Assembly: GCA_008690995.1 (NCBI GenBank)
Contig: VRMN01000002.1
Location: 2,343,699-2,407,698, forward strand
Direction of reading: 5' to 3'
From: Porphyridium purpureum
Lineage: Eukaryota > Rhodophyta > Bangiophyceae > Porphyridiales > Porphyridiaceae
Length of the DNA: 64,000 nt
Shown: positions 26,475-64,000 of the stretch, one piece after another
How the letters are laid out: every line of letters starts with the position of its first letter
Position numbering within the stretch: the first letter of the stretch is position 1
Translations under genes and position numbers: made by a program
Notes under the pieces: generated by a model
The model's input: only the letters and a program-made list of their open reading frames with translations
The model's database searches: none
What the model was told of the DNA's origin: nothing

Positions 26475-26795
26475 CTTTAAATTCTCGCACGCTTGATGAT
26501 GACAAGCGCACGAACCCGGATGACACAACCTTTCGCAGATGACCGAACCCCAGCAACACGACGCACACAGCACAGAGAACACAACCACACGACGCACACA
26601 ACACAGACGACGAATACCCGGGGCGTGGAAAATCCAACGTATAGGGCCTCTACTATTGCCCTTCGCGTCGGCACAGACAGCACCGGTCTCGACAGGGGCA
26701 GGGTGTCGTAACGGACAAAGCCGCCGTCTGCCTTCAGTGCTCTAAGAGCACCGAAACCCCCCAGACGCGATGTGCTGCTGGCTCTGCTACACAGG
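26475..26795 (-). mobile_element. LTR fragment (3' part) of the Myb-type copia family, reverse orientation
   Basis: CTTTAAATTCTCGCACGC at the left is the reverse complement of the 3' end of the LTRs at 41949-42756 and 47142-47918. The match continues for about 320 bp to GCTCTGCTACACAGG and then stops. The missing LTR part lies on the right, where the sequence passes directly into AGGGTTATATAGG, the head of the following module. Confidence 0.85.
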
Positions 26796-33061: not shown

Positions 33062-33099
33062 TCCCCTCGAGATCTCCTCCTGTCTTGGCTCTCGAGGTC

Positions 33100-34047: not shown

Positions 34048-34064
34048 TCTCTCCAAACAACCGG

Positions 34065-34076
34065 GCGATGATACCA
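34065..34076 (-). other. Primer-binding site of copia A
   Basis: TGGTATCATCGC on the minus strand, abutting the 5' LTR. It resembles the initiator-Met tRNA-type site (TGGTATCA) used by many copia elements. Confidence 0.7.
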
Positions 34077-39388: not shown

Positions 39389-39400
39389 CGGGCCGCTTCC

Positions 39401-40432: not shown

Positions 40433-40558
40433 TTTGTCTGCCGCACGCCGCTCGAACTTCCTGTCAGCGCCGTCGGCCTTGTCCCCCCGTACCCTTGACC
40501 GGAGATCCTACTTCCGCTCGTACTCTTGACGAAGCGGAGGAAGCGTTGAATGTTTTTG

Positions 40559-40913
40559 TGTTGAAGTACGCCCCCGGCGTAAACCCTGCAAAGTCAAGAA
40601 ACGGTTTACTTTGTAATACCACTCGCGTCAAAAACATATTCGCCTACCCAAACGCTACACTCAAAATTTCCACCCTACTCCTTGGCCCTGCAGCATTTTA
40701 TACCCCTGTAGCTGCACTGTGGCGGCGGCGCGGAGATGCAAAGCGACAAGGAAACGTCAGTGTGGACTTCTAGAAACGTCGCAAACATACGTGCCCATGG
40801 CTCGTGCTAGCACGCAGGCTCGCACCCGACCGAACACATTAAACAGTCCAAACAGTCCAAGTCGTTGACCCGGATAACCATTCAACCATTAACCATTTGC
40901 ACGTACATCAACA
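40559..40913 (-). repeat. 5' LTR of copia B
   Basis: 355 bp with TGTTGA/TCAACA ends. A TATAAAA-like box on the minus strand is near 40697-40703. Confidence 0.93.
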
Positions 40914-41098
40914 GAAGACCACAGAACACTACGAAAAGCCGCTGGACACTACTGGAGACCACAGAACACTACAGGAGACCACAGAACACTACAGAAGACC
41001 ACAGAACACTACGAAAAGCCGCTGGACACTACTGGAGACCACAGAACACTACTGGAGACCACAGAACACTACAGGAGACCACAGAACACTACAGAAGG
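40914..41098. repeat. 20-bp minisatellite, segment 3
   Basis: About nine units in the same phase and with the same variants as segment 2. It starts with the copia B target duplication GAAGA and ends in a copia fragment that begins within a CAGAAG unit. Confidence 0.88.
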
Positions 41099-41412
41099 TG
41101 TAGAATAAACCCCCGACTGGTGGTATTACAAGGCATTGAGTTACTCTAGGTCGGCACGACAACGGCGTACTTTACTTACCTTGCCAAACACGCGGTGGGC
41201 AAACAAACTACAGCACTCCTTACGGAGACACGTTGTTCCCGCTCCCTAGGCACGCGCCCTCGCCGCCGCTTTTATACGCGCCCCCGCTGCCCGTACATGA
41301 ACGTTACGCCCGCCACACGAGCAACCACAACCTGCGCATCCGCCGTATACACCCGCCCACAAACCGTAACGTCAACCCGCACACAGACGCACAACTTCTC
41401 GGTTTGCTCACA
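41099..41412 (-). repeat. 3' LTR of copia D
   Basis: 314 bp with a TATAAAA-like box on the minus strand (about 41269-41275). The right boundary is set by the adjoining polypurine run AAAAGGAGTG on the minus strand. Confidence 0.7.
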
Positions 41413-41768
41413 CACTCCTTTTGTGGTCGCAGTCGTGGTCAACCGCACGGATCAACTTCGCAGGCGCATCGATTCCCAACAAATTATCTCGCATCTTCAC
41501 AAACTTCGAACCTTGTAGCGGCTTCGTAAGAGCGTCCGCCAGCATGTCTTCGGTTCTACAGTGCTCTAGCACCACGAGCCCTTTCTCCACCAAGTCACGT
41601 ACAAAGAAGTGGCGTATGTCAATATGCCTCGAGCGCTTGGTCGTGCCTCGGCCGGCATTGATGAGTGCTAATGTGGCCGTGTTGTCCTGTAACACCGCCA
41701 CCTTGGAAACAGCCACACCTTGGCTGCAGAGCATCTTGTATGCCCATAGGCCTTGTCCGACAGCGTCT
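41408..41768 (-). pseudogene. C-terminal RNase H fragment of copia D pol
   Basis: The frame encodes AVGQGLWAYKML, DNTATLALINAG, RSRHIDIRHFFVRD and ADALTKPLQGSKF, the standard end of a copia RNase H domain. Everything N-terminal of the AVGQ block is missing. The stop at 41408 lies beside the LTR. Confidence 0.85.
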
Positions 41769-42756: not shown

Positions 42757-42768
42757 TGGTATCATCGC
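42757..42768 (+). other. Primer-binding site of copia C
   Basis: TGGTATCATCGC directly after the LTR, identical to the site in copia A. Confidence 0.7.
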
Positions 42769-42778
42769 ATCGGCGAAG

Positions 42779-43735: not shown

Positions 43736-43788
43736 AACCTCGAGGGAGAAGTTGGGAGGTGCACTCGAGGGGAACGGAACCTCCCGGG

Positions 43789-47151: not shown

Positions 47152-47918
47152 AAGTGTTCCGGTCCGAGAGACGCCCTGGGTGTACACCCGGAGGTACGGC
47201 GTCTCGGAATTGTTTGAGGTACAGGGGCTTTTTCGCCCACGTGGTTTTTTACCCTGTACCTCTGGTTTGTGCATTGTTGTCTTTCGCCCCGAGGAGCCGG
47301 AGTCGCGTGTCCGAGGGAAGCAGGAGCCGCTTGGCGGCCGGCCAGCACCCATTGAGCCGCTTGCTGACGTGGCTGGCTGTGGCTTCGTTCTGTGGAACGA
47401 ACGGAGGAAAGCCCAGCCTTTGGGAGAAATAATTTCTCCCTTCCGCGTCAAGGACAGCAAGGACGGCGGGGTATATAATGGGCGCGGGCCCGTGCGGTTC
47501 CCCGGATTTTCTTTAGAGCGGAAGAAGTAGAGGCAAGGGAGAAGGACACAGAGAATAAAAGAGGAGTTGGTTCTTTGGTGTCGGGTGCCTGGGCGTGGTC
47601 GTCGGAAGGCGTGGGGCCTTTTGCTGAGCCTGTGTAGCAGAGCCAGCAGCACATCGTGTCTGGGGGGTTTCGGTGCTCTTAGAGCACTGAAGGCAGACGG
47701 CGGCTTTGTCCGTTACGACACCCTGCCCCTGTCGAGACCGGTGCTGTCTGTGCCGACGCGAAAGGCAATAGTAGAGGCCCTATACGTTGGATTTTCCACG
47801 CCCCGGGTATTCGTCGTCTGTGTTGTGTGCGTCGTGTTGCTGGGGTTCGGTCATCTGAGAAGGGTTGTGTCATCCGGGTTCGTGCGCTTGTCATCATCAA
47901 GCGTGCGAGAATTTAAAG
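47142..47918 (+). repeat. 3' LTR of copia C, with 31-bp deletion
   Basis: 777 bp. Compared with the 5' LTR it lacks 31 bp between two copies of GTGTGCGTCGTGT, the expected result of slippage between direct repeats. About seven other base differences are visible. Confidence 0.92.
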
Positions 47919-48032
47919 GAAATGCGTACTTTCTGGGTTACTCTAGGGTTAAAGGAGGTTTTGCGGGTTGGGTTAGCTTACCTCATCTCTAGTACAGTTC
48001 ACGATCCACACTGTACACTACTGTAGGGTCTT
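47919..48032 (+). other. Telomere-like GGGTTACTCTAGGGTTA and spacer between copia C and module copy 2
   Basis: After the GAAAT target duplication and nine more bases comes CTGGGTTACTCTAGGGTTAA (from 47933). GGGTTGGGTTAG follows near 47967 and TGTAGGGTCTTAGGGTTAT at the module boundary. No gene is present. Confidence 0.6.
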
Positions 48033-50315
48033 AGGGTTATATAGGCGAAAAATACCTGCAGCGAGAAATTTTAGCCTTGAACGGTAGGGTAACGTGACTT
48101 AAAATCATAAAACAAGGTTACTTTACTATGGAATGCCGCTGTTGTGGGGGTACGCTGCGGAACCCTAAAGTTAATGTAAGCGCGTCCGCAAAACAGGTGC
48201 GTTTTGCTAAATGAAATTCGGTTACTATGAAAAAAAATTACTTTACTAGAGCTGATTTTACTATTCAAACGCACGTATTTAGAGGCTTTGTGCCCATTTC
48301 AATGTCATCCTCAGCAAAGTAATTTGTATTGCATAGACATCACAAATTGTAATGCATTGCAGCGTCATCCCATGTGAAGGACACGGGACTATATGAGAAT
48401 GACACTGTTTGATGATTTAAATAAGCATAGAAGGATAGGCTATAATTATGATCATGCCGGCGGCGAAGGAGGGGAGGTCGACGCGAAGGGGAAGAAGGTT
48501 GGATCCGGATGGTTGTCGAGCGCGGGCGGGCGCGGGCGAGCGCGGTGGGCGCGGCGGGCGCGGGCGGCGCGTGGCGGCGGCGCGCGGGCGCGGTGGGCGC
48601 GCGGGCGCGGCGGGCGCGGCGCTGTTCGCGGGCGCGCGGTGGGGTGCGGGCACGGGCGGGCGGCAGTGCGCGAGTGGCGCGGCGGTGGTAGCCGGGCAGA
48701 AGTGGCGCGGCGTGCGTGAGAATGTTGGATAGGCACTGGGCAGTGCTTCACACGAGCGGCACGAGGACGGCGCACAGGCGCGCGATCCGTTTCAACAGCT
48801 GTGTGCATTGTGCACTTGCGAGCTGAACCTAACCAACATGCTCGAATGCGTCAAGGCAAGGATGCTGGCGAATGTGAGCGGGATGCTTTTGAGTGGTAAG
48901 CCGGGCACTGGTTTGGGCATGGATGTGTTGCGTGAGGGCGCAGTATGCATGCGCTGGCGTGAGAATGGAGTGCGTGATTGAATGCCACGAAGCGTGCCAT
49001 GGATGATGTTTTCATTGCTGCCGTCTCGTTACGAGCGACTGCTCGCTTGCGCGATTCTCAAGCGACAGAGGTGGGTTGCGTTTTGGGCGGCCGGGCTATG
49101 ACAACACCTTTGATGATCGAACGATGCTGGGCTCGCTGTGCTGGGCTCGCTGTGCTGGGCTCGCTGTGCTGGGCTCGCTGTACTGAGCTCGCTGTGCTGG
49201 GCTCGCTGTGTGGGCTCGCTGTGTGGGCTCGCTGTTCGTTGCGTCCCGTCAGGCAGTAAGCTTCAGGGCACGCGTACTGTTGCACACGAGGCGGCTGCGC
49301 ACAACAAGCTGGTGCGTTCATCGGGCGCGGTGCGCGGCTTGCAAAGAGCGTGGGCTAACGTTGGATGTTGCGGTGCGCGCACCTTTCAAGGCAGAAAGAG
49401 ATGGATTGCATTTTTGGCCGCCGGGCTGGGCGACACTTTTGATGGCTGCGCGGTACGGGCTCGCTACGCCCTGTGCGCGTTGTGGACCAGCAAACTGTGG
49501 CAACACCTTTCCTTTTCGCGAGATATGGGCTCGCTGTGCACTGTGGCTTGCGTGCCGTTAAGCGCCAAGCTTTAGCGTGAGTGCATTGGTGAAAAAGAGG
49601 CGGCGTTGTGCGTCGATCTTGCTCGTTCGTTGTCCGCGGGGCGCACACGACGCAAAGAACGTGGGCAGTGGTTGAATGTCGCGATGCGCGTCGACGCCAA
49701 GCCTGCGCACTAAGACCGCGCGCAGCCGGAGAACGTAGGCGACGTAGCCTGAATCCGCATCTCGGCGTGACCGGTGCAACAGTGCCAGTTTCGTTATGCT
49801 GTGTCTTGCCAGATCGCAATGGCGCTGGCGCGATCTTGCACGTGTGCGCTCGTGAATGGGCTGCCGCGATTGTTGGTGGGACGTCGGCTCTGGAGTTGCG
49901 CAGACAAACGGCAGCCGAGGGCTGGCGCGAAAAATGGGGCGCCGATGGGGTGGTGCGGAAATCGTGGCGGTGACGGGCTGGTGAAAAGATCATGGCTGCG
50001 GCGATCGCGTCGCTACGCGCATGCCACACTGTTATATGTGTGCGATCAGCTCTGGCGCCGCTTCTCGCGAAACTTCGAGCTACTGCTGAAAGCATGTTAC
50101 GAAAATAAAATACAACGTAGCCAAGAAAACTTGAGCCAGCGCTTTGCAGCAGACTCAAGACATACCCTTGAAAGACACGGACTTGCCATGTGTCATGCAC
50201 AACTTTTCGAAGGCAAAGTGTGAGAATTGTGAGCGCGGGGAATGTACTGAACACTACCGAAGACCACAGAACACTATAGGAGACCACAGAACACTACGAA
50301 AAGCCGCTGGACACT
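48033..50315 (+). repeat. Subtelomeric-type module, copy 2
   Basis: Direct repeat of 26793-29094, offset about 21.2 kb, nearly identical outside the GC tract (about 48470-48700) and the 14-bp repeat (49127-49237). The head is TTAGGGTTATATAGG and it ends in the minisatellite. No recognisable gene. Confidence 0.88.
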
Positions 50316-50594
50316 ACTGGAGACCACAGAACACTACAGGAGACCACAGAACACTACAGGAGACCACAGAACACTACAGAAGACCACAGAACACTACGAA
50401 AAGCCGCTGGACACTACTGGAGACCACAGAACACTACAGGAGACCACAGAACACTACAGAAGACCACAGAACACTACGAAAAGCCGCTGGACACTACTGG
50501 AGACCACAGAACACTACAGGAGACCACAGAACACTACAGAAGACCACAGAACACTACGAAAAGCCGCTGGACACTACTGGAGACCACAGAACAC
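50248..50594. repeat. 20-bp minisatellite, segment 4
   Basis: About seventeen units with the same four variants and 80-bp order as 34874-35227. Ends at a copia C-family insertion that starts after AACAC. Confidence 0.9.
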
Positions 50595-51403
50595 CATGGA
50601 TTAAAAGTGTTCCGGTCCGAGAGACGCCCTGGGTGTACACCCGGAGGTACGGCGTCTCGGAATTGTTTGAGGTACAGGGGCTTTTTCGCCCGCGTGGTTT
50701 TTTACCCTGTACCTCTGGTTTTGTGCATTGTTGTCTTTCGCCCCGAGGAGCCGGAGTCGCGTGTCCGAGGGAAGCAGGAGCCGCTTGGCGGCCGGCCGGC
50801 ACCCATTGAGCCGCTTGCTGACGTGGCTGGCTGTGGCTTCGTTCCGTGGAACGAACGGAGGAAAGCCCAGCCTTTTGGGAGAAATAATTTCTCCCTTCCG
50901 CGTCAAGGACAGCAAGGACGGCGGGGTATATAATGGGCGCGGGCCTGTGCGGTTCCCCGGATTTTCTTTAGAGCGGAAGAAGAAGAGGCAAGGGAGTACG
51001 ACACAGAGAATAAAGGAAGAGTTGTTCTTTGGTGTCGGGTGCCTGGGCGTGGTCGTCGGAAGACGTGGGGCCTTTTGCTGAGCCTGTGTAGCAGAGCCAG
51101 CAGCACATCGTGTCTGGGGGGTTTCGGTGCTCTTGGAGCACTGAAGGCAGACGGCGGCTTTGTCCGTTACGACACCCTGCCCCTGTCGAGACCGGTGCTG
51201 TCTGTGCCGACGCGAAAGGCAATAGTAGAGGCCCTATACGTTGGATTTTCCACGCCCCGGGTATTCGTCGTCTGTGTTGTGTGCGTCGTGTGGTTGTGTT
51301 CTCTGTGCTGTGTGCGTCGTGTTGCTGGGGTTCGGTCATCTGAGAAGGGTTGTGTCATCCGGGTTCGTGCGCTTGTCATCATCAAGCGTGCGAGAATTTA
51401 AAG
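50595..51403 (+). repeat. 5' LTR of the truncated copia C-family element
   Basis: 809 bp, starts CATGGATT, ends TTTAAAG, retains the 31-bp segment missing from the 3' LTR of copia C. Confidence 0.9.
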
Positions 51404-51425
51404 TGGTATCATCGCATCGGCGAAG

Positions 51426-51599
51426 ATGGATTCTGAGGGAATGGACGTGCAGGGCCTGCAGGGCGGCGCGTCGTGGATTGAAGCTTTCAACCAGCTTCAT
51501 GCTCGTATCGGAGGACAAGAAATGATGATTGTGCAGCTGCAGGAGGGAAATCGCCTCTTGCAGGAGATGCTGCAGAGCGTGATGCATCAGGCATCTGTG
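51426..51599 (+). pseudogene. gag: N-terminal gag fragment (truncated copia)
   Basis: 58 codons identical to the start of copia C Gag except one Asn to Ser change. The frame then runs into telomere-like DNA and stops at 51626. Dead by truncation. Confidence 0.9.
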
Positions 51600-51754
51600 G
51601 TTACTCTAGGGTTAGGGTTACTCTGAAATCGTTTTACATTATAAATCTAGAGGGCCTAAGTACTTTACCTATGTATCAGCAAAGTCAGTGCGACTCTGCT
51701 TCCGATTCCGAGAGTACCTCGCCTACAAAGAGGCGCCTGCCCGTCTCCAGCCAG
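51600..51754 (-). mobile_element. 3'-end fragment of the telomere-linked non-LTR retrotransposon
   Basis: GGTTACTCTAGGGTTAGGGTT is followed by ACTCTGAAATCG and a 120-bp match to the 3' end of the elements at 55287 and 63560. It is cut on the right at GTCTCCAGCCAG, where a second telomere-like run begins. This copy has one more TTAGGG at its 3' boundary than the other two. Confidence 0.85.
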
Positions 51755-51788
51755 GGTTACTCTAGGGTTAGGGTTACTCTAGGGTTAC
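51755..51788 (+). repeat. Telomere-like variant repeat run
   Basis: GGTTACTCTAGGGTTAGGGTT then ACTCTAGGGTTAC: alternating TTACTCTAGGG and TTAGGG units with the G-rich strand reading rightward. It joins the truncated retrotransposon end to the head of module copy 3. Confidence 0.8.
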
Positions 51789-52261
51789 AGGCGTTTTTGA
51801 GGTAGGGTGGGGCGTAGCGTAGGGTTCCTCACTTCGTGTTGAGGGTGCAGTGAGTACACTGGTCCTAGGGTTACATAGGGCGTTTGCACTCGCACTCGCT
51901 TGAAACCTCGTTTTATATAGTAAAACGTGGTTGTTTTGATATAAGAAACAGCGAGGTTTTAGTGATTTTTGCATAGTACAATGCCTCTGTTTTAGTAAGA
52001 AAAGTGTGTACTATAAAGGATAATTTATTCGCTATGAGAAACTAAGCATGTAAAAACGACCCAAACATTGCGGTGTAATGCATTGTATTGCCATCCCTAA
52101 TGGAGAACGAGGAAGCATATAAAAACGACACTGTTTGGATATCTTACTAGAGCATACGAGAATGCCATAGTATTATGATGATGGTGACGGCCAAAGGGAC
52201 GAGATTGACGCAAGGGCGGAGGTGTGTGGGCGATGGTGCGTTATACAGGTGGAAAAAAAAG

Positions 52262-52655
52262 TAGGGCAGATTGTCCAAAGTCCAAAGTTGCGATTTGTAT
52301 AGTAAAATGGTATCGTTTTAATATAGAAAAATTTTACTATAGAGGTTCGTGTCCAAAGTTGACTTTTTCATATGTAAATGGCATTGTTTTAGTACGAAAA
52401 ATTTAGCATAGAAAGACGACCCCCAAAAATGGGTGGTAATGCATTACATGGGCATCCCGAATTGGCTGTGAATAAGCATAGTAAAACAGTATTAGTTTGC
52501 TATGGTACCGAGCATGGAAAATTGGCACTGAAATGTCATAAAATGCGCATCAAGCTGGACTGAGGACGAAGTGCCTGTTGCGCGATCAGCGGGTGGTGCG
52601 GGCGGCGGGGTGAGAGACGTGGAGCGCGAACGGTTGGGCGCGGGCGGGCGCGGCG
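52262..52655 (+). repeat. Internal 390-bp direct repeat, copy a (partner 53453-53832)
   Basis: Begins CAGATTGTCCAAAGTCCAA and ends in GGTTGGGCGCGGGCGGGCGC. The partner 1.19 kb downstream is about 85% identical by eye. Confidence 0.8.
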
Positions 52656-53055
52656 GCCGGCGGGCACGGCGGGTGCGGGCGCGGGCAGTCGGGCGGTGGG
52701 GCGCGTGGGGCGTGGGCACGGGCGCGCGGAGGTACGCGAGTGGTGTCGGGCGGTGGCGTCGCGCGCGTCGGCGGGTAACGACTGGGCAAGATTTTGGTTG
52801 GCGTCTCGCACGGCACGAGCCAGCACTTGGAGCAAGGCGCGAGGTTGGGGCGCGCAGCAGCTGAGAAATGACACACGGAAGCCATATGGTAGGTTGATGT
52901 TAAAAAACATTAAAAAATTGTTTACTCAAGTATGCTACAAATTTGTCATTCAAAATGGATATTGAATGATAGCCCGTGCTCACGCGCTCACAACGATATG
53001 CTTTGTATGTGAAACGATGCTTGTATGGCTGAGATATATGACTGTAAGTACCTTT

Positions 53056-53362
53056 GCAGCGGGTACGCCATTCGCAATGGTGGGTACATGATCCGCAGCC
53101 ATGGGTCCGGCATCCGCATATGCTGAACCCCTCAAATCACGGGTGCCAGCAGAACTTCTACCCTAGAGGTACAGTATCTTCATACTGGGGACGCGGTATC
53201 CGCTTATGATGGGCATGCCAGCCGCAGCATGTGTACAGTCACGCGAAACATAGTGGGCACGTGATTTGCAGGGTGGGTACGTGATCCGCAAGGTGGGGAC
53301 GCGAGCCGCAAGGTGGGTACGCGAGCCGTAAAGTGGGTACGTGATCCGCACGTTGGGTCGAG
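53056..53362. repeat. About 20-bp imperfect tandem repeat (GTGGGTACGTGATCCGCAAG type)
   Basis: Degenerate copies of GTGGGTACGTGATCCGCAAG, best preserved at 53273-53362. Copied at 61304-61610. Confidence 0.75.
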
Positions 53363-53452
53363 TCAATAAGGGTACCATAATAAAATGGTGTTGATTTACT
53401 ATAAGTGAGTACAACAACGATACTGTACAGTTGCACAGGGGAAAAGAAGAGT

Positions 53453-53832
53453 AGATTGTCCATAGTCCAACGTTGCGTTCTGCATAGTACCACGGTATCG
53501 TTTTAATATGAAAATAATTTACCATAGCGGTTCGTGTCCATAGTTGCCTTTTTTATAGGTGAATGGCATTGTTTTAGGCTGAAAGATTTAGCATAGAAAG
53601 ACGACCCCCAAAATGGGTGGTAATGCATTACATAGGCATCCCGAATTCGCGGTGAATAAGCATAGTAAAACAGTATCATTTTGATATGATACCCGAGCAT
53701 AGCAAATTACCATTGAAATGTCATAAAATGCGCATCAAGCTGGACTCAGGACAAAGTGCCTGTTGCGCGATCAGCGGGTGGTGCGGGCGGCGGGGTGAGA
53801 GACGTGGAGCGCGAACGGTTGGGCGCGGGCGG
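53453..53832 (+). repeat. Internal 390-bp direct repeat, copy b
   Basis: Second copy of 52262-52655, ending in the same GC-rich tract. Confidence 0.8.
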
Positions 53833-55165
53833 GCGCGCGGGCGCGGGCGGGCGCAGTCGGGCGCGGGCGCAGGCGCAGTCGAGCGGTGGGGCGCGTTGGG
53901 GCGCGTTGGGGCGTGGGCCGGCAAGGAGAAATGAGATTGTCTTGGGAAGTAGAGTGGGATCGCGAAGTGCGAAATGGACCTCGCTGCAGCGCAGCAGGGT
54001 GAAGGAGAAGCCACTTTCACGGAGCATGCGAGCGGCGAGAAGGAGAAGCAAGATTTGCGGCGTACTGCGCCGCCGCCGCCGAGCAAGCGTGCCGAAAGGA
54101 GGCGCAAAATTCGCCGGACAATGTGCCGCGGAGCATGTGCGGCGCGAGGAGGTGCGAGGTGATGTTGCACAACGCGATGGCGCAGCCGCCGCCGAGCAAG
54201 CGCGCCACAAGGAGGCACGGGATTCGCCGCACAACGGGCCAGTGCTGTGGAGCATGCGCGACGCAATGAGATGCGAAAAGATGTTGCACGACGCGAGGGT
54301 GCAGCCGCCGCCGTGCAAGCGCGCCGCTAGGAAGAGGCGCAAGAGCTTGCCGGATAACGCACCGTTGCCGCGGAGCACGCGCGCCATGAGCAGGTGCGAG
54401 ATGTCACACAACGCGCCACTGTAACGGAGCAGGCGCACCGCGAGGAGGCGCGAGATTCGGCCGAACAATGCGACGGCGCCGCCGCCGCCGAGCAAGCGCA
54501 CCGCGACGCTGCAGACGGCCAGCAACGTGGTCAGATTGTCGAGGACGACGACGGCCTTGCGGAATCGCTGATGTGGTTACGAGAGATGGCGCTGTTTGGA
54601 GACGCGTACGCGTAGGTCAGGCCGGGCCATGTCTATAGCGAGGGTTGGGGCAGGGTGCGCGAGGACGGTCACGCGGCGGTCGAGTGGTGGCACAAGGCCG
54701 CGGAACAGGGGCTTGCAGTGGCGCAGTTTTACTTGGGCTTTCTTTACAAAGGTGGGGATGGTGATCTGCCAAGAACGGAAGCGCAGCGGTCGAGGAGTTC
54801 CGCAAAGTCGCGGATCATGGCGATACGCGGGCGCCGTTTCTTTTGAGCTTTTGCTGTGACAGCGGGCGGGGCGGTGCGCCAGAGGACAAGCGCTCAGCGA
54901 TCGAGTGGCCACGCAAGGCCGCCGAATATGGAGACGCACTGGCACAGTGCGATTTGGGCGCTTCGTTTTCTAATGAGTCAGGCAGGCTGTGCGAGGACAA
55001 GCTCGCGATGGGTTAGTGGTGGCGCAAGGCCACGGAGTAAGGAACCGCAGGGAAGCAATAAAATTTATGCACTTGCTACCGTATTGGTTAAGGCAGTGTG
55101 CGCAAATCCAGACGCGACAGCTGCGCAAGGGATGAGCGCGGGTGCGCTTGAGCACACGTGAGAAT

Positions 55166-55223
55166 GAGCATGAGTGAGCACGAGTGAGCACGAGTGAGCA
55201 CGAGTGAGCACGAGTGAGCACGG
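55166..55223 (+). repeat. 10-bp tandem repeat GAGCACGAGT
   Basis: About six units. The tandem-duplicate copy at 63429-63496 has one more unit, so the repeat is length-variable. Confidence 0.85.
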
Positions 55224-55337
55224 ATGATCGCACAGAACACTACTCCAGACGACAGAACACCACCGAAGACTACAGAACACTACTGAGGTTACTCTAGGGT
55301 TACTCTGAAATCGTTTTACATTATAAATCTAAAGGGC

Positions 55338-56040
55338 CTAAGCTCTGTACCTATGTATCAGCAAAGTCAGTGCGACTCTGCTTCCGATTCCGAGAGTACC
55401 TCGCCTACAAAGAGGCGCCTGCCCGTCTCCAGCCAGTGCTGCGAGGCAACTGGCAGAGTCGGGCCCGGGTGCCGTAGAAGCACCGCCGCCGCCACCGAGC
55501 GGTACACCGCGAGCGACAGCGACCGGTGGAGCGCCGTGCTCGCCAGCATCTTGCTGACTCCACGGTGCCGCATGTACGCCGCCACCAGAGTCTCCAGAAA
55601 CGCGGCTCCGCACTGTTCGCGCCGGCCGTACGTGTCCAGAATGACCGCCTGGAACGACACGCCAGCAGCGTCGCCGGTGCGCGCAGCAGCCTGGAAGGAG
55701 GCCTGCTTGCGACGCGCCGCTGCCGCCAGTGCCGCTCCGTCGGACCGCCTGGTGCCGGTGCGGTCGGGCACCACCACCGCCCACATCGACCCACGTGCTG
55801 TCCACGCGCAGGTCGCCCGGCCGGCGCAAGTCAGCCGCGCCGGGAAGAGCGCACCTCGCGCTCCACCGGCAAACCAGCGCGCGCGCAAAGGCAACCACGG
55901 CGTCGACCACCAGTGCGTGCCGACCGTACCGCGACGGCCCGAGGCGAGCGCGTGGTGACCGTGCTGGTCCAGCGCGCCCCGCAGACGGCATCCGAGCTGC
56001 CCGATAGCGCCGGACACGGACGCCGCGCTGCGTGGCTCAC
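55338..56040 (-). pseudogene. C-terminal endonuclease-like region of the non-LTR element, frame-broken
   Basis: Three frames share the conserved blocks. GRHALVVDAVVAFARAL and DLRRPGDLRVDSTWVDV are in one; AGLPVEREV in the second; AARRKQASFQAAARTG and SFQAVILDTYGRREQCGAAF in the third. RPxDL, the following Asp/Val and the K-rich helix then ETYG-like block are the arrangement I know from PD-(D/E)XK-like C-termini of RLE retrotransposon proteins. An upstream CRLRGALDQHGHHALAS stretch stands where the Cys/His motif before the endonuclease is expected. At least three frame changes lie within 350 bp. Confidence 0.65.
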
Positions 56041-57476
56041 AGACAGGCCAGCATGTGTCGCACAGCCACGCGCCATGCAGCTGCACTCGGCGGCGCGCTT
56101 CCGTGCGTGCCGGCCAGCTGCGTGGCAGACGGCATCCCGAGCCACGCCAGCGCGTGCGGCGAGCTGACGCTGCGACGTCGGTGAAAGTCTGGGTCGGACG
56201 GGGCCGGCGCGTGGGACCAATCTGAGCACCATTGTCGATAAAAGCGACGGCTCCCACGTGCCTGCGAGTCCAGCAGGGCTTCCACATCTTCGTCTGGCTC
56301 CAGGCGCCACTGCGCCACGGCGTGTGCGTCTCCGTCAAACCTTCGCCACCACTGCGCGAGCGACGGAGGGTACACGCGTGCGGGCGGGTTGTCCACCACG
56401 CGCGCGGCAGCACGACTGCCGGCGGCAAACGCAAACGGCGCAATGTCTGCCACTGCGGTCAGTCCCAAGCCGCCAAGCGAGCACGGCAGCCGCCACTCGG
56501 CCTTGCACGGCTCGCCGACCTCGTGTGCCATCACACCCAGCGCGCGCGCGACAATGCTGCGCCACGCGCGGTCAAACTCGGCAAAGATGCGAGTCACGAC
56601 GGGCGGAGGCATGGTGCGCGCCAGGTGCATCAGGCGCTTTGGCCCGACGCTGCCCCGCAGGAGGTAGAACGCCTCTTCGGGGTGGCTGAGCTTGGCCACC
56701 TGCTCCGCCAGCTGGAGCACCTGCGCGCTCGCGTTGGTGATCGGCACGAGCGACTCGCCACTGCCGGTAAAGTCGAGCGGCACACCGAGCAGCTGCGCTT
56801 GGTCCCACGCCAGACGCGGCAGGTCGGCGAGTCCCGCGGGCACGACTGCCGTGTGCATTCCGGGAGGCAGTACCAGCTGCGTCTTGGTGCGGTTCACGCA
56901 CATGCCGTGCACGGCCGCGTCGCTCGAAAAGGCGTCCAGGAAGCCTTCCAGCTGCGCGAGCGGCCCCACAATGCTGCCGTCGTCCAAGTACCAGAACGAC
57001 GACAAGCCCGGCGACTCGGTGTCTGCCAGCACCTTGTGCAGCACCAGCGAGAACAGCAAGGGCCCCAGCGGGTCGCCCTGCTGCACGCCGCACGCGCTGG
57101 CCAGCACATGGGCGCCCACTCGCAGCGGAGCCGGATGCGCGTACGTTGAGCGCACCAGCGGCCACAGCGCGGGGAAACGGCCCTGCACGATGCGCATCAG
57201 CGTGGGCCGGTCGACGCAGTTGAACGCGTTCGCAATGTCGACGAGCAGCACGGCTGTGCCTGGACTCTGCATCGCGGGCGCGTCCCCAGCACCGCGCCTT
57301 CGAGCCCGGCCGGGCGTCCCACGCCGTACTGGTCGGGCCGGAGCGACTCGGCTGCGTCGCTGCCCAGGTGTGCCAGCACCAGCTTGCCCAGCACGCGCCG
57401 CAGCAGCTCGCCCACTGCAATCGGTCGGACGCCGCCGTCCTTCTTCTTGAGCGGGATGAGGCGTGCGTGGCTCCAC
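56037..57476 (-). CDS. Non-LTR element ORF segment: reverse transcriptase core
   Basis: 479 codons. RT motifs are clear: LVDIANAF at 78-85 (motif A Asp), GVQQGDPLGPLLFSL at 130-144, FWYLDDGSIVG at 161-171 (catalytic YLDD). The thumb-like region follows, ending RHMLACL. Residues 1-65 are out-of-phase translation of the neighbouring segment; genuine coding enters this frame near 57300, where the zinc-finger frame leaves off. The RT residues are intact although the gene is broken at both ends. Confidence 0.85.
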   Translation of the reverse strand: MEPRTPHPAQEEGRRRPTDCSGRAAAARAGQAGAGTPGQRRSRVAPARPVRRGTPGRARRRGAGDAPAMQSPGTAVLLVDIANAFNCVDRPTLMRIVQGRFPALWPLVRSTYAHPAPLRVGAHVLASACGVQQGDPLGPLLFSLVLHKVLADTESPGLSSFWYLDDGSIVGPLAQLEGFLDAFSSDAAVHGMCVNRTKTQLVLPPGMHTAVVPAGLADLPRLAWDQAQLLGVPLDFTGSGESLVPITNASAQVLQLAEQVAKLSHPEEAFYLLRGSVGPKRLMHLARTMPPPVVTRIFAEFDRAWRSIVARALGVMAHEVGEPCKAEWRLPCSLGGLGLTAVADIAPFAFAAGSRAAARVVDNPPARVYPPSLAQWWRRFDGDAHAVAQWRLEPDEDVEALLDSQARGSRRFYRQWCSDWSHAPAPSDPDFHRRRSVSSPHALAWLGMPSATQLAGTHGSAPPSAAAWRVAVRHMLACL

Positions 57477-59302
57477 AGCGCGCCAGCTTGCGGATGCAGA
57501 CCAACACTGGCGATGCGCTTGAACGCGAGAGCCACGGCCCCGAGCGCCGTGTCACCCGCCACGGGCGTGCGGATGACCTGCTGCAGCACGCCTATGGACC
57601 ACCGCGACGGTCCGCACCCGCTGGTGTGCGGAATGGCCAGAATGGACTTGCGCACCGCCTGCGCGTCCCACGGCACGCGCATGCACTGCAGCTGGTCGAT
57701 ACTGACCGACTCGACTGGTGCGACGAGCGCTGCGTCGTGGCTGCCGCTGCGAGCCCCTGCCTCTGGATGCAGCTCGCGCAAGCGCGCCAGCACCGAGTCC
57801 GTGACGTCGTGCACACCCGCCGACTCGACCAGTCGCGCCGCGGCGCCAATGTGGTTGGCGCGCACATGCTGCACGATGCGGTGCTCCACGGCCTCTGGTG
57901 GTATGGGTCTGAGGTGTTGACCGTCCACCACAGGCACCGAGTCGAGCAGTGGCTCGAGCGCATCGGAGCGCCACATCTTGAGCCGCGTCGCCAGGTATCT
58001 TGCCCGCGCGCGCGTGCTCTGGCGCTCCATGGGCAGGCACAGCACCAAAGTCGGAAACACCCACAGCTTTCCGAGCGCGCGGACTTGTGCGGCCTCGGAC
58101 GCGGCTTCGGCCAGCTCCGTGAGCATGCTGCTGAACTCGAGCGCAACGTCCGGCGCAAACTTTGCCGGTACGCGCTTCCACGTGCGCACGCGCAGCCCCA
58201 GCACCCAATCTACCGTTTGAAGAATGGTGAGTATGGGGGCGTCGAGCAGCGGCGACGGCGGATGCGCAGCGGCGTGACGCGCCGTCGACACATGCGTGTC
58301 TGCGGCCGTGTCGGAGCCACTGCGGTGTCGTCGCATGCTCCGCTTGCGCCCGCTCGCTATGCAGACTGCGCGACCGCCGTGCCCTTCAAATGCCACAGCA
58401 CAACGCGCAGGATCCCGGCATCGACTGCGCTGGTGGCGCACGGACAGCGCAGGCAGCAAGCACATCGCGCCGCACGCCCGGCGTGCCAGCCCAACCGCTC
58501 TGAGCGCGTCCGGTGGCACTGCGGCAAGTGTTTCAGCCGAGTGATTACTGCCCGCCAAGTGCCGCAGCAGCCCAGCTGGCTCGGCCCACGAGGCCTCACA
58601 GCCTGCCACGGGGCACGCGTTCCACAGCGCTCGGCACGCTGGACACTGGCACGCGTCTTGGGGCTGCACGTCGCGCACCGCCCATCCGCACGCGTTTCGC
58701 CTCAAGTGCAGGCTGGACAGAAGCTCGGCACTCGCTGGCTCCGTCGGATGTGCCGCACGCCAGTGCTTGCCCAGCTGAGCCGCACTCTGGTAGCGTCGCA
58801 TGCACTCGGCGGCCGGACATGCGTGCGGCGCTTCGAGCTGCGCCATCCGAGCCACGCTGCGTCGCGAAATGTCAAAGCCCGCCGGACGGAGCATGCGAGC
58901 AGAGCTGCGAACAGATGCGCTGTGGCCAAGCACGGCATCCCTGACCGCTATGTGTGCGGCAGGCCCCGCACGCTGGCGCGGTCGTCGTGCGGACCGACGT
59001 GTGGCGCGACCGTCTGCCGAGTCTGCGACACTGTGCGGAGATGCCACTGGCGCGTGCGTGGCTGCCAGCACCCTAGAGCTGGAGATGTGCGCATCCACCA
59101 CCGCACTCTCTCGCGCAGGACCAGCACGCTCACGCAGTTCCACTGGTCCACCCGGCCGACTTTGTAGCCGGCCTCGCCCAGACGCTCGACGAGCGCGGGG
59201 GCGTGCGGGAGCCCATTCCGCGTCGCTTTCCTCACTTGAGGCTAGAAGACTTGCGCCGCGCGGACCGGGCCCTTCCCACGAGTCAGAAAGTGTCTCACTC
59301 AT
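57197..59302 (-). CDS. Non-LTR element ORF segment: C2H2 zinc fingers and RT fingers
   Basis: 701 codons. Two classical C2H2 fingers: Cys162, Cys167, His180, His185 and Cys230, Cys235, His248, His254, with a further Cys/His cluster at about 277-295. Then come the N-terminal RT blocks (TSGCGPSRWSIGVLQQVI, LIPLKKKDGGVRPIAVGELL, RPDQYGVGRPAGLEGAV). Coding passes to the frame of the 56037-57476 segment near 57300, so the last 30 or so residues are out of phase. Fingers of this kind bind target DNA in R2-like elements; here the target may be the telomere-like repeat, which is inference. Confidence 0.8.
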   Translation of the reverse strand: MSETLSDSWEGPGPRGASLLASSEESDAEWAPARPRARRASGRGRLQSRPGGPVELRERAGPARESAVVDAHISSSRVLAATHAPVASPHSVADSADGRATRRSARRPRQRAGPAAHIAVRDAVLGHSASVRSSARMLRPAGFDISRRSVARMAQLEAPHACPAAECMRRYQSAAQLGKHWRAAHPTEPASAELLSSLHLRRNACGWAVRDVQPQDACQCPACRALWNACPVAGCEASWAEPAGLLRHLAGSNHSAETLAAVPPDALRAVGLARRACGAMCLLPALSVRHQRSRCRDPARCAVAFEGHGGRAVCIASGRKRSMRRHRSGSDTAADTHVSTARHAAAHPPSPLLDAPILTILQTVDWVLGLRVRTWKRVPAKFAPDVALEFSSMLTELAEAASEAAQVRALGKLWVFPTLVLCLPMERQSTRARARYLATRLKMWRSDALEPLLDSVPVVDGQHLRPIPPEAVEHRIVQHVRANHIGAAARLVESAGVHDVTDSVLARLRELHPEAGARSGSHDAALVAPVESVSIDQLQCMRVPWDAQAVRKSILAIPHTSGCGPSRWSIGVLQQVIRTPVAGDTALGAVALAFKRIASVGLHPQAGALWSHARLIPLKKKDGGVRPIAVGELLRRVLGKLVLAHLGSDAAESLRPDQYGVGRPAGLEGAVLGTRPRCRVQAQPCCSSTLRTRSTASTGPR

Positions 59303-59338
59303 GAGCCCCGAAGGGCGAAGCCGCCGAGGGAGCCGGAG

Positions 59339-59878
59339 TCACAGCGTGGACCTCCGGAAGTGCGGGAGCGGCAAACTCTTGGCCGCTGGCACGGCCCACT
59401 GCGGAACGGTGGGCGTGGGCCGTCTTGCACTGCATGCAGCGTGCGCGGTGCTGGTCCCGAGAGTGCGCAGAGCCGCTGAGCGCATGCCATGCTCCACACG
59501 GGTCTGCAGCGAGTCCTGCCTCGGCAAGCGCGTCTGTCGAGACCGCGTGATGCGCGCCGCGGTGGCGCGGTTTGCGTGGCGCACCATGCTGGCCTCGCGC
59601 GCCGCTCGGAACAAGCAGGCCGGAAACGGGCAGCGCAGCGCCTCGTCCGAGCTTTCGGAACGACTCGAGTCGCCGGCGTCAGAAGTTCCGGCGACCGGTG
59701 CATGCTGCACAGCGTCATTCAACAGACAGGCGGCAGTGCTCAGACCCGCACTGTTCTGCTGCGCGTGCTCAACGCCTCTGTCTACTGCAGACTCTTGCTG
59801 CGCTGCTTCCGCCGTCACTCTAGGCACTTCTGCAGCCGCCCGGGAACGCTTGGGCAAAGTAGCCCGGGACGGAGACAC
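59339..59878 (-). pseudogene. N-terminal frame of the non-LTR element with a C2H2-like motif
   Basis: The frame has no ATG (first possible start is GTG 59878) and is open up to the junction at 59910. It carries SSDEALRCPFPACLFRAARE followed by a His at the spacing of a C2H2 finger, then loses sense before 59339, just ahead of the 701-codon frame. Probably the 5' part of the same protein, frameshifted and perhaps 5'-truncated. Confidence 0.55.
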
Positions 59879-59910
59879 CGTGCGCGATAACGCGGCAGCG
59901 GCGGGTCGCT

Positions 59911-60016
59911 AGGGTTACAGGCGTTTTTGAGGTACGGTGGGGCAGATCCTAGGGTAGGGTTTCTCTGCGCATACAGGTACAGCGATTACACTTGATCCAG
60001 CAGTACAGTATGTATA
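59911..60016 (+). other. Double telomere-like junction between tandem units
   Basis: CTAGGGTTACAGGCGTTTTT (59908 on) is followed by GAGGTACGGTGGGGC, then CCTAGGGTAGGGTTTCTCTG, a 50-base spacer, and again GGTTACAGGCGTTTTTGAGG at 60017. Two copies of the same head motif 96 bp apart suggest two successive junction events. Confidence 0.7.
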
Positions 60017-63000
60017 GGTTACAGGCGTTTTTGAGGTAGGGTGGGGCGTAGCGTAGGGTTCCTCACTTCGTGTTGAGGGTGCAGTGAGTACACTGGTCCT
60101 AGGGTTACATAGGGCGTTTGCACTCGCACTCGCTTGAAACCTCGTTTTATATAGTAAAACGTGGTTGTTTTGATATAAGAAACAGCGAGGTTTTAGTGAT
60201 TTTTGCATAGTACAATGCCTCTGTTTTAGTAAGAAAAGTGTGTACTATAAAGGATAATTTATTCGCTATGAGAAACTAAGCATGTAAAAACGACCCAAAC
60301 ATTGCGGTGTAATGCATTGTATTGCCATCCCTAATGGAGAACGAGGAAGCATATAAAAACGACACTGTTTGGATATCTTACTAGAGCATACGAGAATGCC
60401 ATAGTATTATGATGATGGTGACGGCCAAAGGGACGAGATTGACGCAAGGGCGGAGGTGTGTGGGCGATGGTGCGTTATACAGGTGGAAAAAAAAGTAGGG
60501 CAGATTGTCCAAAGTCCAAAGTTGCGATTTGTATAGTAAAATGGTATCGTTTTAATATAGAAAAATTTTACTATAGAGGTTCGTGTCCAAAGTTGACTTT
60601 TTCATATGTAAATGGCATTGTTTTAGTACGAAAAATTTAGCATAGAAAGACGACCCCCAAAAATGGGTGGTAATGCATTACATGGGCATCCCGAATTGGC
60701 TGTGAATAAGCATAGTAAAACAGTATTAGTTTGCTATGGTACCGAGCATGGAAAATTGGCACTGAAATGTCATAAAATGCGCATCAAGCTGGACTGAGGA
60801 CGAAGTGCCTGTTGCGCGATCAGCGGGTGGTGCGGGCGGCGGGGTGAGGGCAATGGGGGCGCAGACGAGTTCAGGCGCGGGCGGGCGCGGGCGGGCGCCA
60901 GCGGAAGACACGGGCGGGTGCGGGCGCAGGCGCAGTCGGGCGGTGGGGCGCGGTGGGGCGTGGGCACGGGCGCGCGGAGGTACGCGAGTGGTGTCGGGCG
61001 GTGGCGTCGCGCGCGTCGGCGGGTAACGACTGGGCAAGATTTTGGTTGGCGTCTCGCACGGCACGAGCCAGCACTTGGAGCAAGGCGCGAGGTTGGGGCG
61101 CGCAGCAGCTGAGAAATGACACACGGAAGCCATATGGTAGGTTGATGTTAAAAAACATTAAAAAATTGTTTACTCAAGTATGCTACAAATTTGTCATTCA
61201 AAATGGATATTGAATGATAGCCCGTGCTCACGCGCTCACAACGATATGCTTTGTATGTGAAACGATGCTTGTATGGCTGAGATATATGACTGTAAGTACC
61301 TTTGCAGCGGGTACGCCATTCGCAATGGTGGGTACATGATCCGCAGCCATGGGTCCGGCATCCGCATATGCTGAACCCCTCAAATCACGGGTGCCAGCAG
61401 AACTTCTACCCTAGAGGTACAGTATCTTCATACTGGGGACGCGGTATCCGCTTATGATGGGCATGCCAGCCGCAGCATGTGTACAGTCACGCGAAACATA
61501 GTGGGCACGTGATTTGCAGGGTGGGTACGTGATCCGCAAGGTGGGGACGCGAGCCGCAAGGTGGGTACGCGAGCCGTAAAGTGGGTACGTGATCCGCACG
61601 TTGGGTCGAGTCAATAAGGGTACCATAATAAAATGGTGTTGATTTACTATAAGTGAGTACAACAACGATACTGTACAGTTGCACAGGGGAAAAGAAGAGT
61701 AGATTGTCCATAGTCCAACGTTGCGTTCTGCATAGTACCACGGTATCGTTTTAATATGAAAATAATTTACCATAGCGGTTCGTGTCCATAGTTGCCTTTT
61801 TTATAGGTGAATGGCATTGTTTTAGGCTGAAAGATTTAGCATAGAAAGACGACCCCCAAAATGGGTGGTAATGCATTACATAGGCATCCCGAATTCGCGG
61901 TGAATAAGCATAGTAAAACAGTATCATTTTGATATGATACCCGAGCATAGCAAATTACCATTGAAATGTCATAAAATGCGCATCAAGCTGGACTCAGGAC
62001 AAAGTGCCTGTTGCGCGATCAGCGGGTGGTGCGGGCGGCGGGGTGAGAGACGTGGAGCGCGAACGGTTAAGACGCAGGCGGGCGCAGACGGGCGCGGGCG
62101 GGCGCGCAGGCGCAGTCGGAAGGGCGCAGGCACAGGCGCAGTCGAGCGGTGGGGCGCGTTGGGGCGCGTTGGGGCGTGGGCCGGCAAGGAGAAATGAGAT
62201 TGTCTTGGGAAGTAGAGTGGGATCGCGAAGTGCGAAATGGACCTCGCTGCAGCGCAGCAGGGTGAAGGAGAAGCCACTTTCACGGAGCATGCGAGCGGCG
62301 AGAAGGAGAAGCAAGATTTGCGGCGTACTGCGCCGCCGCCGCCGAGCAAGCGTGCCGAAAGGAGGCGCAAAATTCGCCGGACAATGTGCCGCGGAGCATG
62401 TGCGGCGCGAGGAGGTGCGAGGTGATGTTGCACAACGCGATGGCGCAGCCGCCGCCGAGCAAGCGCGCCACAAGGAGGCACGGGATTCGCCGCACAACGG
62501 GCCAGTGCTGTGGAGCATGCGCGACGCAATGAGATGCGAAAAGATGTTGCACGACGCGAGGGTGCAGCCGCCGCCGTGCAAGCGCGCCGCTAGGAAGAGG
62601 CGCAAGAGCTTGCCGGATAACGCACCGTTGCCGCGGAGCACGCGCGCCATGAGCAGGTGCGAGATGTCACACAACGCGCCACTGTAACGGAGCAGGCGCA
62701 CCGCGAGGAGGCGCGAGATTCGGCCGAACAATGCGACGGCGCCGCCGCCGCCGAGCAAGCGCACCGCGACGCTGCAGACGGCCAGCAACGTGGTCAGATT
62801 GTCGAGGACGACGACGGCCTTGCGGAATCGCTGATGTGGTTACGAGAGATGGCGCTGTTTGGAGACGCGTACGCGTAGGTCAGGCCGGGCCATGTCTATA
62901 GCGAGGGTTGGGGCAGGGTGCGCGAGGACGGTCACGCGGCGGTCGAGTGGTGGCACAAGGCCGCGGAACAGGGGCTTGCAGTGGCGCAGTTTTACTTGGG

Positions 63001-63559
63001 CTTTCTTTACAAAGGTGGGGATGGTGATCTGCCAAGAACGGAAGCGCAGCGGTCGAGGAGTTCCGCAAAGTCGCGGATCATGGCGATACGCGGGCGCCGT
63101 TTCTTTTGAGCTTTTGCTGTGACAGCGGGCGGGGCGGTGCGCCAGAGGACAAGCGCTCAGCGATCGAGTGGCCACGCAAGGCCGCCGAATATGGAGACGC
63201 ACTGGCACAGTGCGATTTGGGCGCTTCGTTTTCTAATGAGTCAGGCAGGCTGTGCGAGGACAAGCTCGCGATGGGTTAGTGGTGGCGCAAGGCCACGGAG
63301 TAAGGAACCGCAGGGAAGCAATAAAATTTATGCACTTGCTACCGTATTGGTTAAGGCAGTGTGCGCAAATCCAGACGCGACAGCTGCGCAAGGGATGAGC
63401 GCGGGTGCGCTTGAGCACACGTGAGAATGAGCATGAGTGAGCACGAGTGAGCACGAGTGAGCACGAGTGAGCACGAGTGAGCACGAGTGAGCACGGATGA
63501 TCGCACAGAACACTACTCCAGACGACAGAACACCACCGAAGACTACAGAACACTACTGA
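60017..63559 (+). repeat. Subtelomeric-type module, copy 4
   Basis: Tandem copy of 51783-55286, offset 8234-8273 bp. Differences are concentrated in the GC-rich tracts (about 60850-60960 and 62065-62150) and in one extra GAGCACGAGT unit. It carries the same internal repeats and the same dead kinase/Sel1 relic. Confidence 0.9.
61004..63330 (+). pseudogene. Second copy of the kinase/Sel1 relic
   Basis: Near-identical to the relic in module copy 3, with the same stops and frameshifts (for example the AAVEWWHKAAEQGLAVAQFY block at 62936-62995), so it was dead before the tandem duplication. Confidence 0.75.
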
Positions 63560-64000
63560 GGTTACTCTAGGGTTACTCTGAAATCGTTTTACATTATAAA
63601 TCTAAAGGGCCTAAGCTCTGTACCTATGTATCAGCAAAGTCAGTGCGACTCTGCTTCCGATTCCGAGAGTACCTCGCCTACAAAGAGGCGCCTGCCCGTC
63701 TCCAGCCAGTGCTGCGAGGCAACTGGCAGAGTCGGGCCCGGGTGCCGTAGAAGCACCGCCGCCGCCACCGAGCGGTACACCGCGAGCGACAGCGACCGGT
63801 GGAGCGCCGTGCTCGCCAGCATCTTGCTGACTCCACGGTGCCGCATGTACGCCGCCACCAGAGTCTCCAGAAACGCGGCTCCGCACTGTTCGCGCCGGCC
63901 GTACGTGTCCAGAATGACCGCCTGGAACGACACGCCAGCAGCGTCGCCGGTGCGCGCAGCAGCCTGGAAGGAGGCCTGCTTGCGACGCGCCGCTGCCGCC
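63560..64000 (-). mobile_element. Second non-LTR retrotransposon copy, 3' end only (runs off the window)
   Basis: From GGTTACTCTAGGGTTACTCT at 63560 the sequence repeats 55287-55727 with no visible difference, including the out-of-frame endonuclease-like C-terminus. It proves the tandem arrangement and implies that at least another 4 kb of the element lies beyond the window. Confidence 0.9.

What the first reader, a model, noticed from the sequence alone, without database searches (positions are those of the whole stretch)
51600..64000. Tandem array of an RLE-type non-LTR retrotransposon whose 3' ends are anchored in telomere-like repeats
Three copies (51600, 55287, 63560) all lie on the minus strand. 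Each 3' end reads ...AGAGTAACCCTAGAGTAACC, and each is followed inward by GGTTACTCTAGGG-type DNA. An RNA ending in the C-rich telomere-like sequence could anneal to a G-rich 3' overhang and be copied straight onto a chromosome end. Zinc fingers plus a C-terminal restriction-like endonuclease fit the CRE/R2-like group, which includes MoTeR, a telomere-dwelling fungal element. The orientation (3' end inward, 5' end outward) is that of HeT-A/TART, SART and MoTeR arrays. I know of no description of such an element with TTACTCTAGGG-type ends.
Basis: partly seen in the sequence, partly recalled or inferred. Interest (0 to 1): 0.9.

Follow-up and report, generated by a model that had tools for sequence, protein, structure and literature searches.

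The report
Telomere-anchored retrotransposon in a layered subtelomere
A decayed jumping gene that carries a restriction-enzyme-like cutter sits, always the same way round, on telomere-like DNA in a eukaryotic chromosome region that looks built up by repeated breaking and re-capping of a chromosome end, much as in the rice blast fungus.

Summary
Minus-strand 3' ends lie at 51599, 55287 and 63560, each preceded by GGTTACTCTAGGG (6 copies in the window, all on +). TAGGGTTA occurs 13 times, all on + (0.38 expected), but plain TTAGGG is not enriched. Copy 1 is a 142-bp stub; copies 2 and 3 belong to one recent 8.2-kb tandem duplication. So only two 3' contexts are distinct, and a 3.4-kb non-element block separates the copies. 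Three of the six motifs lack an element, so the motif is probably host DNA.

The element (about 4.6 kb, frame broken) is an RLE-type non-LTR retrotransposon: intact relatives share its layout, and a relative's endonuclease model matches R2 structures. The three copia-like fragments found in the window all stop, on the outward side, at telomere-like DNA.

Best reading: a layered subtelomere made by break, re-capping and recombination, holding relics of a telomere-seeking RLE element, closely parallel to MoTeR relics. Host, true telomere repeat, chromosome-end position and clade (CRE or other) could not be tested. New member of a known kind.

The parts
51599..51624 (+). Telomere-like seed GGTTACTCTAGGGTTAGGGTTACTCT, joined on its left to a broken copia gag; its end overlaps the 3' end of the stub
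51613..51754 (-). 142-bp 5'-truncated stub (3' end only) of the element, 4 mismatches to copy 2
51755..51787 (+). Telomere-like seed on the 5' (outward) side of the stub: GGTTACTCTAGGGTTAGGGTTACTCTAGGGTTA
51865..55286 (+). Subtelomeric block B1: starts CTAGGGTTACATAGGG, holds GC-rich minisatellites and a Sel1-repeat gene relic, ends in a 20-bp minisatellite
55287..55306 (+). Telomere-like seed GGTTACTCTAGGGTTACTCT at the 3' end of the long copy; six bases shorter than the seed at 51599
55295..59908 (-). RLE-type non-LTR retrotransposon, long copy (about 4.6 kb), reading frame broken; 5' completeness unknown
57197..59338 (-). Frame with a C2H2-like zinc finger (below Pfam cut-off) and the N-terminal part of the RT
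56037..57551 (-). Frame with the RT palm (PF00078, 1.3e-11; GVQQGDPLGPLLFSL, YLDD)
55454..56199 (-). Stretch that aligns across frame changes to the zinc knuckle and restriction-like endonuclease region of L003 (LDQHGHHAL ... LDTYGR); degenerate
59909..60012 (+). Telomere-like start (CTAGGGTTACAGGCG) of a 104-bp cap joined directly to the element's 5' end
60099..63559 (+). Subtelomeric block B2, the tandem duplicate of B1
63560..64000 (-). Start (3' part) of the duplicated element copy; runs off the window
47936..47951 (+). Seed GGTTACTCTAGGGTTA without an element, 95 bp inward of block A2
50595..51598 (+). Copia element (LTR plus start of gag) that lost its outward part exactly at the 51599 seed
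41098..41766 (-). Copia-like fragment (pol similarity at 41468-41767, 45% over 100 aa) that stops at CTAGGGTTAGAGGCG
26475..26795 (-). Copia LTR fragment (natural LTR end inward) that stops at AGGGTTATATAGG, the start of block A1 (3-base overlap AGG)

Best explanation
The right-hand part of the window is a layered subtelomere. Shown: same-orientation blocks (A1, A2, B1, B2) follow one another outward; each begins at or near telomere-like DNA of one orientation; the three copia-like fragments found are cut off on their outward side at such DNA; and an RLE-type non-LTR retrotransposon lies on two different left flanks (stub and long copy) with its 3' end on a seed GGTTACTCTAGGG and its 5' end facing outward into more telomere-like DNA. 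Inferred: when this DNA was a chromosome end, it broke, the end was re-capped with short telomere-like sequence, and whole subtelomeric blocks were then added by break-induced replication or unequal exchange (hence the 8.2-kb tandem duplicate). The retrotransposon's protein, made by intact copies elsewhere, nicked such a seed or used its G-rich 3' end as primer and copied its RNA from the 3' end, leaving 3'-complete, variably 5'-truncated copies. The long copy seen is dead.
For: Strand-pure TAGGGTTA and GGTTACTCTAGGG far above chance. Same 3' terminus on two different left flanks (copia gag; 20-mer array), seeds differing by six bases, different 5' ends. Telomere-like DNA on the 5' side of both. 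RT profile of the window plus four relatives best matched by R2 chains (3e-16, against 1e-8 for LINE-1). RLE relic aligns to the intact relative L003 with score 116, against at most 56 in 60 codon shuffles and 32 for the reverse complement. The RLE profile of six relatives has R2 chains as its four best PDB matches, weakly (E 0.013 to 0.16); the RLE model of relative L013 matches 7 R2 entries at E below 0.001 and nothing else at that level. A search of the whole window with the three copias' proteins and LTRs finds copia-like DNA at three other places, and 3 of 3 stop outward at telomere-like DNA, while the three two-LTR copias have matching 5-bp flanks. Duplicates differ only in or next to tandem repeats. 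MoTeR relics show the same layout: 3' termini with short telomere tracts, two with tracts at the 5' boundary, three in tandem interspersed with other DNA (PMC7367193, passages).
Against: The host genome is not held: no proof that the contig end is near a chromosome end or that the species' telomere contains TTACTCTAGGG. Plain TTAGGG is not enriched (12 against 12.8 expected) and lies on both strands. Seeds are at most a few units long and degenerate. Only two distinct 3' contexts, which could share one origin through recombination at the seed. No telomere-like repeat was found in the relatives' bins with two patterns (0 of 4) nor seen at the relatives' contig ends that were read, so telomere association is not shown for the lineage. 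The window RT alone matches R2 chains only weakly (E 0.0076 to 0.015), and in the alignment the relatives' conserved lysine is not matched.
Confidence: 0.58

Rival explanations
1. Passive passenger: the element inserted once in a subtelomere; its spread and its seeds are due only to recombination between short telomere-like repeats, and the stub is a remnant left when an end broke inside an element copy.
For: The 51599 and 55287 seeds differ by only six bases; copies 2 and 3 are certainly one duplication; seeds exist without the element, so seed-to-seed recombination could carry an element to a new left flank.
Against: Stub and long copy differ at 4 of 142 bases and sit on unrelated left flanks; exact retention of the 3' end with variable 5' ends is the usual mark of target-primed reverse transcription (established knowledge).
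Confidence: 0.25
2. The element is a general RLE retrotransposon without telomere targeting; the G-rich motif is an interstitial or subtelomeric repeat, not derived from telomeres.
For: Host telomere unknown; plain TTAGGG is not enriched; blocks and seeds are degenerate; relatives' bins lack the two telomere patterns tried.
Against: TAGGGTTA is strand-pure from 41768 to 63575 and GGTTACTCTAGGG from 47936 to 63560; outward truncation of three copia-like fragments at this DNA is hard to explain at interior sites.
Confidence: 0.13
3. Assembly artefact: the 8.2-kb duplicate is a misassembly of one unit or of two haplotypes.
For: Most of the two units is identical.
Against: 28 difference events between the blocks under one scoring (12 mismatches and 18 gaps under another), and different DNA on their inward side at 60012 and 51782. 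Even if true, the two distinct 3' contexts remain.
Confidence: 0.08

Closest known systems
MoTeR1/MoTeR2 and MoTeR relics of Magnaporthe (Pyricularia) oryzae (PMC7367193, passages seen)
   Same: Element with a putative restriction-enzyme-like endonuclease, 5' ends facing the chromosome end, 3' ends on short telomere tracts, 5'-truncated copies, LTR elements inserted nearby, tandem relics interspersed with other DNA, breakage and duplication history
   Different: MoTeR sits in TTAGGG telomeres and carries TTCGGG(TTTGGG)n at its 5' end; here the seeds are short mixed TTACTCTAGGG/TTAGGG and no such 5' tract is seen. MoTeR1 has G4 motifs on the G-rich side (PMC10088271, passages); a simple pattern found none in this element. 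RT kinship to MoTeR was not tested
FoTeR of Fusarium oxysporum (PMC12857005, abstract and two sections read)
   Same: RLE domain, telomeric repeats at both ends, truncated copies
   Different: Located at chromosome ends with canonical TAACCC repeats; position in the MoTeR/CRE group shown there by trees, not here
CNL1 of Cryptococcus (PMC12810828, passages seen)
   Same: Subtelomeric, RT nearest to MoTeR, truncated copies, reported insertion into copies of itself (compare relative L004)
   Different: Different telomere; some insertions elsewhere in the genome
GilM/GilT of Giardia (via PMC10088271, passages; otherwise recalled)
   Same: Telomeric non-LTR elements of a protist, placed with CRE by RT in that paper
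   Different: Not compared directly
SART1/TRAS1 of Bombyx (PMC7265360, passages seen)
   Same: Insertion into telomere repeats; telomere-like words in the RNA are proposed to anneal to the target
   Different: APE-type endonuclease (recalled) and poly(A) tail; here RLE and no poly(A) at the 3' end

Membership tests
RLE-type non-LTR retrotransposon | non-LTR reverse transcriptase | tested here: met
   PF00078 1.3e-11; R2 chains best in the PDB profile search with relatives; window alone weak
RLE-type non-LTR retrotransposon | C-terminal zinc knuckle and restriction-like endonuclease | tested here: met
   Present in relatives, with invariant C, H, D, D, K columns in six and R2-like fold in L013; in the window only as a broken relic (116 against at most 56 in 60 shuffles) without all conserved residues
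RLE-type non-LTR retrotransposon | N-terminal zinc fingers | tested here: inconclusive
   C2H2-like match 3.6e-4 but 20.8 bits, below the 27-bit cut-off; further C2H2-like stretches by eye
Telomere-associated CRE-group elements (MoTeR, FoTeR, CNL1) | RT within the CRE clade | not testable with these tools
   No reference RTs available; tree of 7 rows leaves the window row unresolved
Telomere-associated CRE-group elements (MoTeR, FoTeR, CNL1) | 3' end on telomeric repeats, 5' end outward | tested here: inconclusive
   Met for telomere-like DNA at two distinct contexts; host telomere unknown and plain TTAGGG not enriched
Telomere-associated CRE-group elements (MoTeR, FoTeR, CNL1) | located at chromosome ends | not testable with these tools
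   No genome held
SART/TRAS (APE-type telomeric elements) | apurinic-like endonuclease and poly(A) tail | tested here: not met
   No such domain among Pfam hits (E up to 0.1) of the three frames scanned; no A-tract at the 3' end
HeT-A/TART-type terminal arrays | elements directly head to tail forming the end | tested here: not met
   A 3.4-kb non-element block lies between copies
Utopia (NeSL group) | insertion in U2 snRNA genes | tested here: not met
   0 Rfam matches at gathering score in the window

The most novel reading that the evidence does not exclude
A eukaryote, probably not a fungus (a guess), uses an RLE retrotransposon as part of chromosome-end healing: its RNA, ending in AGAGTAACCCTA, anneals to a composite telomere (TTACTCTAGGG mixed with TTAGGG) or to freshly broken ends, so the element both depends on and helps rebuild the ends, and the composite repeat is itself partly written by the element.
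Probability: 0.12. Interest if true: 0.8.

Novelty: new member of a known kind. Interest (0 to 1): 0.5.

Why it matters
The RLE or CRE-group telomeric elements named in the papers I saw come from fungi and Giardia (PMC12857005 section 18; PMC10088271 passages; PMC12810828 passages). A further case in an unidentified eukaryote with an unusual telomere-like motif would widen their range. The outward truncation of three copia-like fragments at telomere-like DNA makes this stretch a readable record of repeated end breakage and re-capping, which a telomere-to-telomere assembly of the host could test directly.

Tried and rejected
Host identification: no genome held; Rfam none; no tRNAs. Porphyridium was a guess from recall (GC, few introns); one paper search (15 of 1,910 listed, listing only) gave nothing that supports it, and it is dropped. 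A search on red algae and telomeres (listing only) gave nothing used.

Motif in print: TTACTCTAGGG and four reverse-complement or longer forms searched anywhere in the held library; 4 and 3 papers held one, judged unrelated from the listings only. No claim is made beyond those two searches.

Relatives in viral contigs: RT searches 0 confirmed; seed pattern 2 contigs (L001, L002), read only around the match and judged chance; the element 3' end and the 20-mer 0. Plasmids: one match, annotated as a group II intron RT, set aside.

Structure of the RLE from alignment A1 failed (pLDDT 33) and is not used; the A1 profile search gave no R2 (two unrelated weak matches); only A3, with L011-L013 added, worked. 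A tree of 7 RT rows is unresolved for the window row. L004 (95% to L003) was left out of A3 and A4; L007-L010 are the same places as L003-L006. The N-terminal zinc-finger alignment to L003 (score 71) had no control and is not used as evidence.

'Seed is the element's own tail' rejected because 3 of 6 exact motif copies lack an element.
Full report
What is there. The motif has 6 exact copies, all +; allowing two mismatches there are 8, all +, against 0.37 expected. TAGGGTTA has 13 copies, all +, against 0.38 expected. One of the 6 and two of the 13 are second copies made by the tandem duplication. TTACTCT occurs 11 times on + and never on -; GGGTTA 22 times on + (19 beyond 41000) and 2 on -. 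Against this, plain TTAGGG is not enriched (12, with 12.8 expected) and lies on both strands, and CTAGGG beyond 41000 is 11 on + and 4 on -. The strand-pure motifs have the orientation of a G-rich strand running to a chromosome end on the right.

What needs correcting. Copy 1 is a 142-bp stub. Copies 2 and 3 lie in one tandem duplication, 51783-55727 against 60017-64000, 98.7%. The element parts agree at 441 of 441 bases. The flanking blocks differ in 28 events under one scoring, all at 52615-52704, 53820-53869 and 55171, in or next to tandem repeats. So the window holds two distinct 3' contexts. Their seeds differ by exactly six bases, and their left flanks are unrelated: a copia gag and a 20-bp minisatellite. 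Three of the six exact motif copies are not followed by an element 3' end (47936, 51755, 51772), so the motif probably belongs to the host.

The element. From 55295 to about 59908 on the minus strand, the frames hold a C2H2-like finger below Pfam's cut-off, an RT (PF00078, 1.3e-11) and a C-terminal region. The frame is broken in several places. The neighbouring copia frames are long and open (1082, 1280 and 1217 aa), so sequencing error is unlikely to explain this. A scan of genome contigs gave 289 pattern matches, of which four were confirmed relatives, L003-L006, at 36-43% identity over the RT stretch. They are in contigs binned with bacteria; I take them to be eukaryotic contaminants (inference). 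L003 is one open frame of 1410 aa (stop to stop), and L006 has frames of 933 and 1350 aa. Three more, L011-L013, came from two of the same bins. Across six relatives the C-terminal region has invariant C, H, D, D and K columns. An AlphaFold model of L013's region (pLDDT 71, pTM 0.68) matched R2 structures as its 7 best, the only ones at or below E 0.001. The RLE profile's four best PDB sequence matches were R2 chains, though weak (E 0.013 to 0.16); an earlier profile and model from fewer relatives gave nothing. The RT profile of the window plus four relatives matched R2 at 3e-16 and LINE-1 at 1e-8; the window RT alone matched R2 chains at 0.0076 to 0.015. The window's own endonuclease relic aligns to L003 with score 116; 60 codon shuffles reached at most 56 and the reverse complement 32. 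It does not keep all conserved residues in that alignment. The class, RLE-type, is therefore well supported; the clade is not known.

Relatives show head-to-tail copies or a circle in 2 of the 4 loci first found. In L004 the similarity to L003 ends at 3272 and, four bases on, a 5'-truncated copy begins (97.7% over 87 bp to L003). The L006 contig has a 141-bp exact terminal overlap, as expected for a tandem array or a circle. No telomere-like repeat was found in the four bins with two patterns. This does not support telomere association for the lineage as a whole.

The setting. Homologous or similar blocks recur in one orientation: A1 from 26793, A2 from 48031, B1 from 51865 and B2 from 60099. 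A1 and A2 match at 98.4% over 2.3 kb; A and B share only short stretches, among them the 20-bp minisatellite at their outward ends. Three two-LTR copia elements (29113-34873, 35228-40913, 41949-47918) have matching 5-bp flanks. A search of the window with their proteins and LTRs found copia-like DNA at three further places: 26475-26795, 41468-41767 and 50595-51599. Each of the three stops, on the outward side, at telomere-like DNA. The second rests on 45% identity over 100 aa. I read these as ends that broke inside a copia and were re-capped (inference).

Mechanism. Shown: orientation, a constant 3' end with varying 5' ends, seeds on both sides, the R2-like enzyme class, the duplication, and outward truncation of copia fragments. 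Inferred: priming on the G-rich 3' end of a seed, possibly helped by the shared word TTACTCT; re-capping; and growth by break-induced replication. In SART1, telomere-like words in the RNA are proposed to anneal to the target (PMC7265360, passages). MoTeR relics give the closest parallel: 3' termini on short telomere tracts, two relics with tracts at their 5' truncation boundary too, and three in tandem interspersed with other DNA, which those authors ascribe to repeated break-induced replication or copying from a circle (PMC7367193, passages).

Limits. The host, its telomere repeat, telomerase status and the contig's place are unknown. Two contexts are few, and they could share one origin through recombination at the seed. 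The seeds are short and mixed, and plain TTAGGG is at chance level. I therefore file it as an RLE-type element with probable telomere association that works like MoTeR, and not as a proven member of the CRE group.

Noticed in passing
L006 1-141 and 6925-7065: Exact 141-bp terminal overlap: this relative is in a head-to-tail tandem array or a circle with a 6924-bp unit.
   Followed up: partly
L004 3272-3363: The 3' end of one element copy is joined to a 5'-truncated copy of itself, head to tail.
   Followed up: partly
window 29113-34873, 35228-40913, 41098, 50595: Copia-type elements of different kinds have inserted repeatedly in the same 20-bp minisatellite (CCACAGAACACTACAGGAGA), suggesting an insertion preference.
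   Followed up: no
window 43498-47151: A copia polyprotein frame carries a Myb-like match (PF00249, 6e-5, 23.5 bits, just under the 24.4-bit cut-off) between integrase and RT.
   Followed up: no
window 54442-55115 and 17146-18120: Block B carries a broken relic of a Sel1-repeat gene whose open relative lies at 17146-18120.
   Followed up: partly
window 23445-26345: A long open frame with 21 WD40 stretches in 126-bp repeats about 94% alike.
   Followed up: no
window 5361-5725 and 10222-10585: Inverted 365-bp repeat, 83% identical, of unknown nature.
   Followed up: no
window 59909-60012 and 60013 on: A cap sequence (CTAGGGTTACAGGCGTTTTTGAGGTAGGG and near variants) recurs at 41767, 51779, 59909, 60013 and, more diverged, 47941; it may be a subtelomeric satellite or the 3' end of a second, non-autonomous element.
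   Followed up: partly
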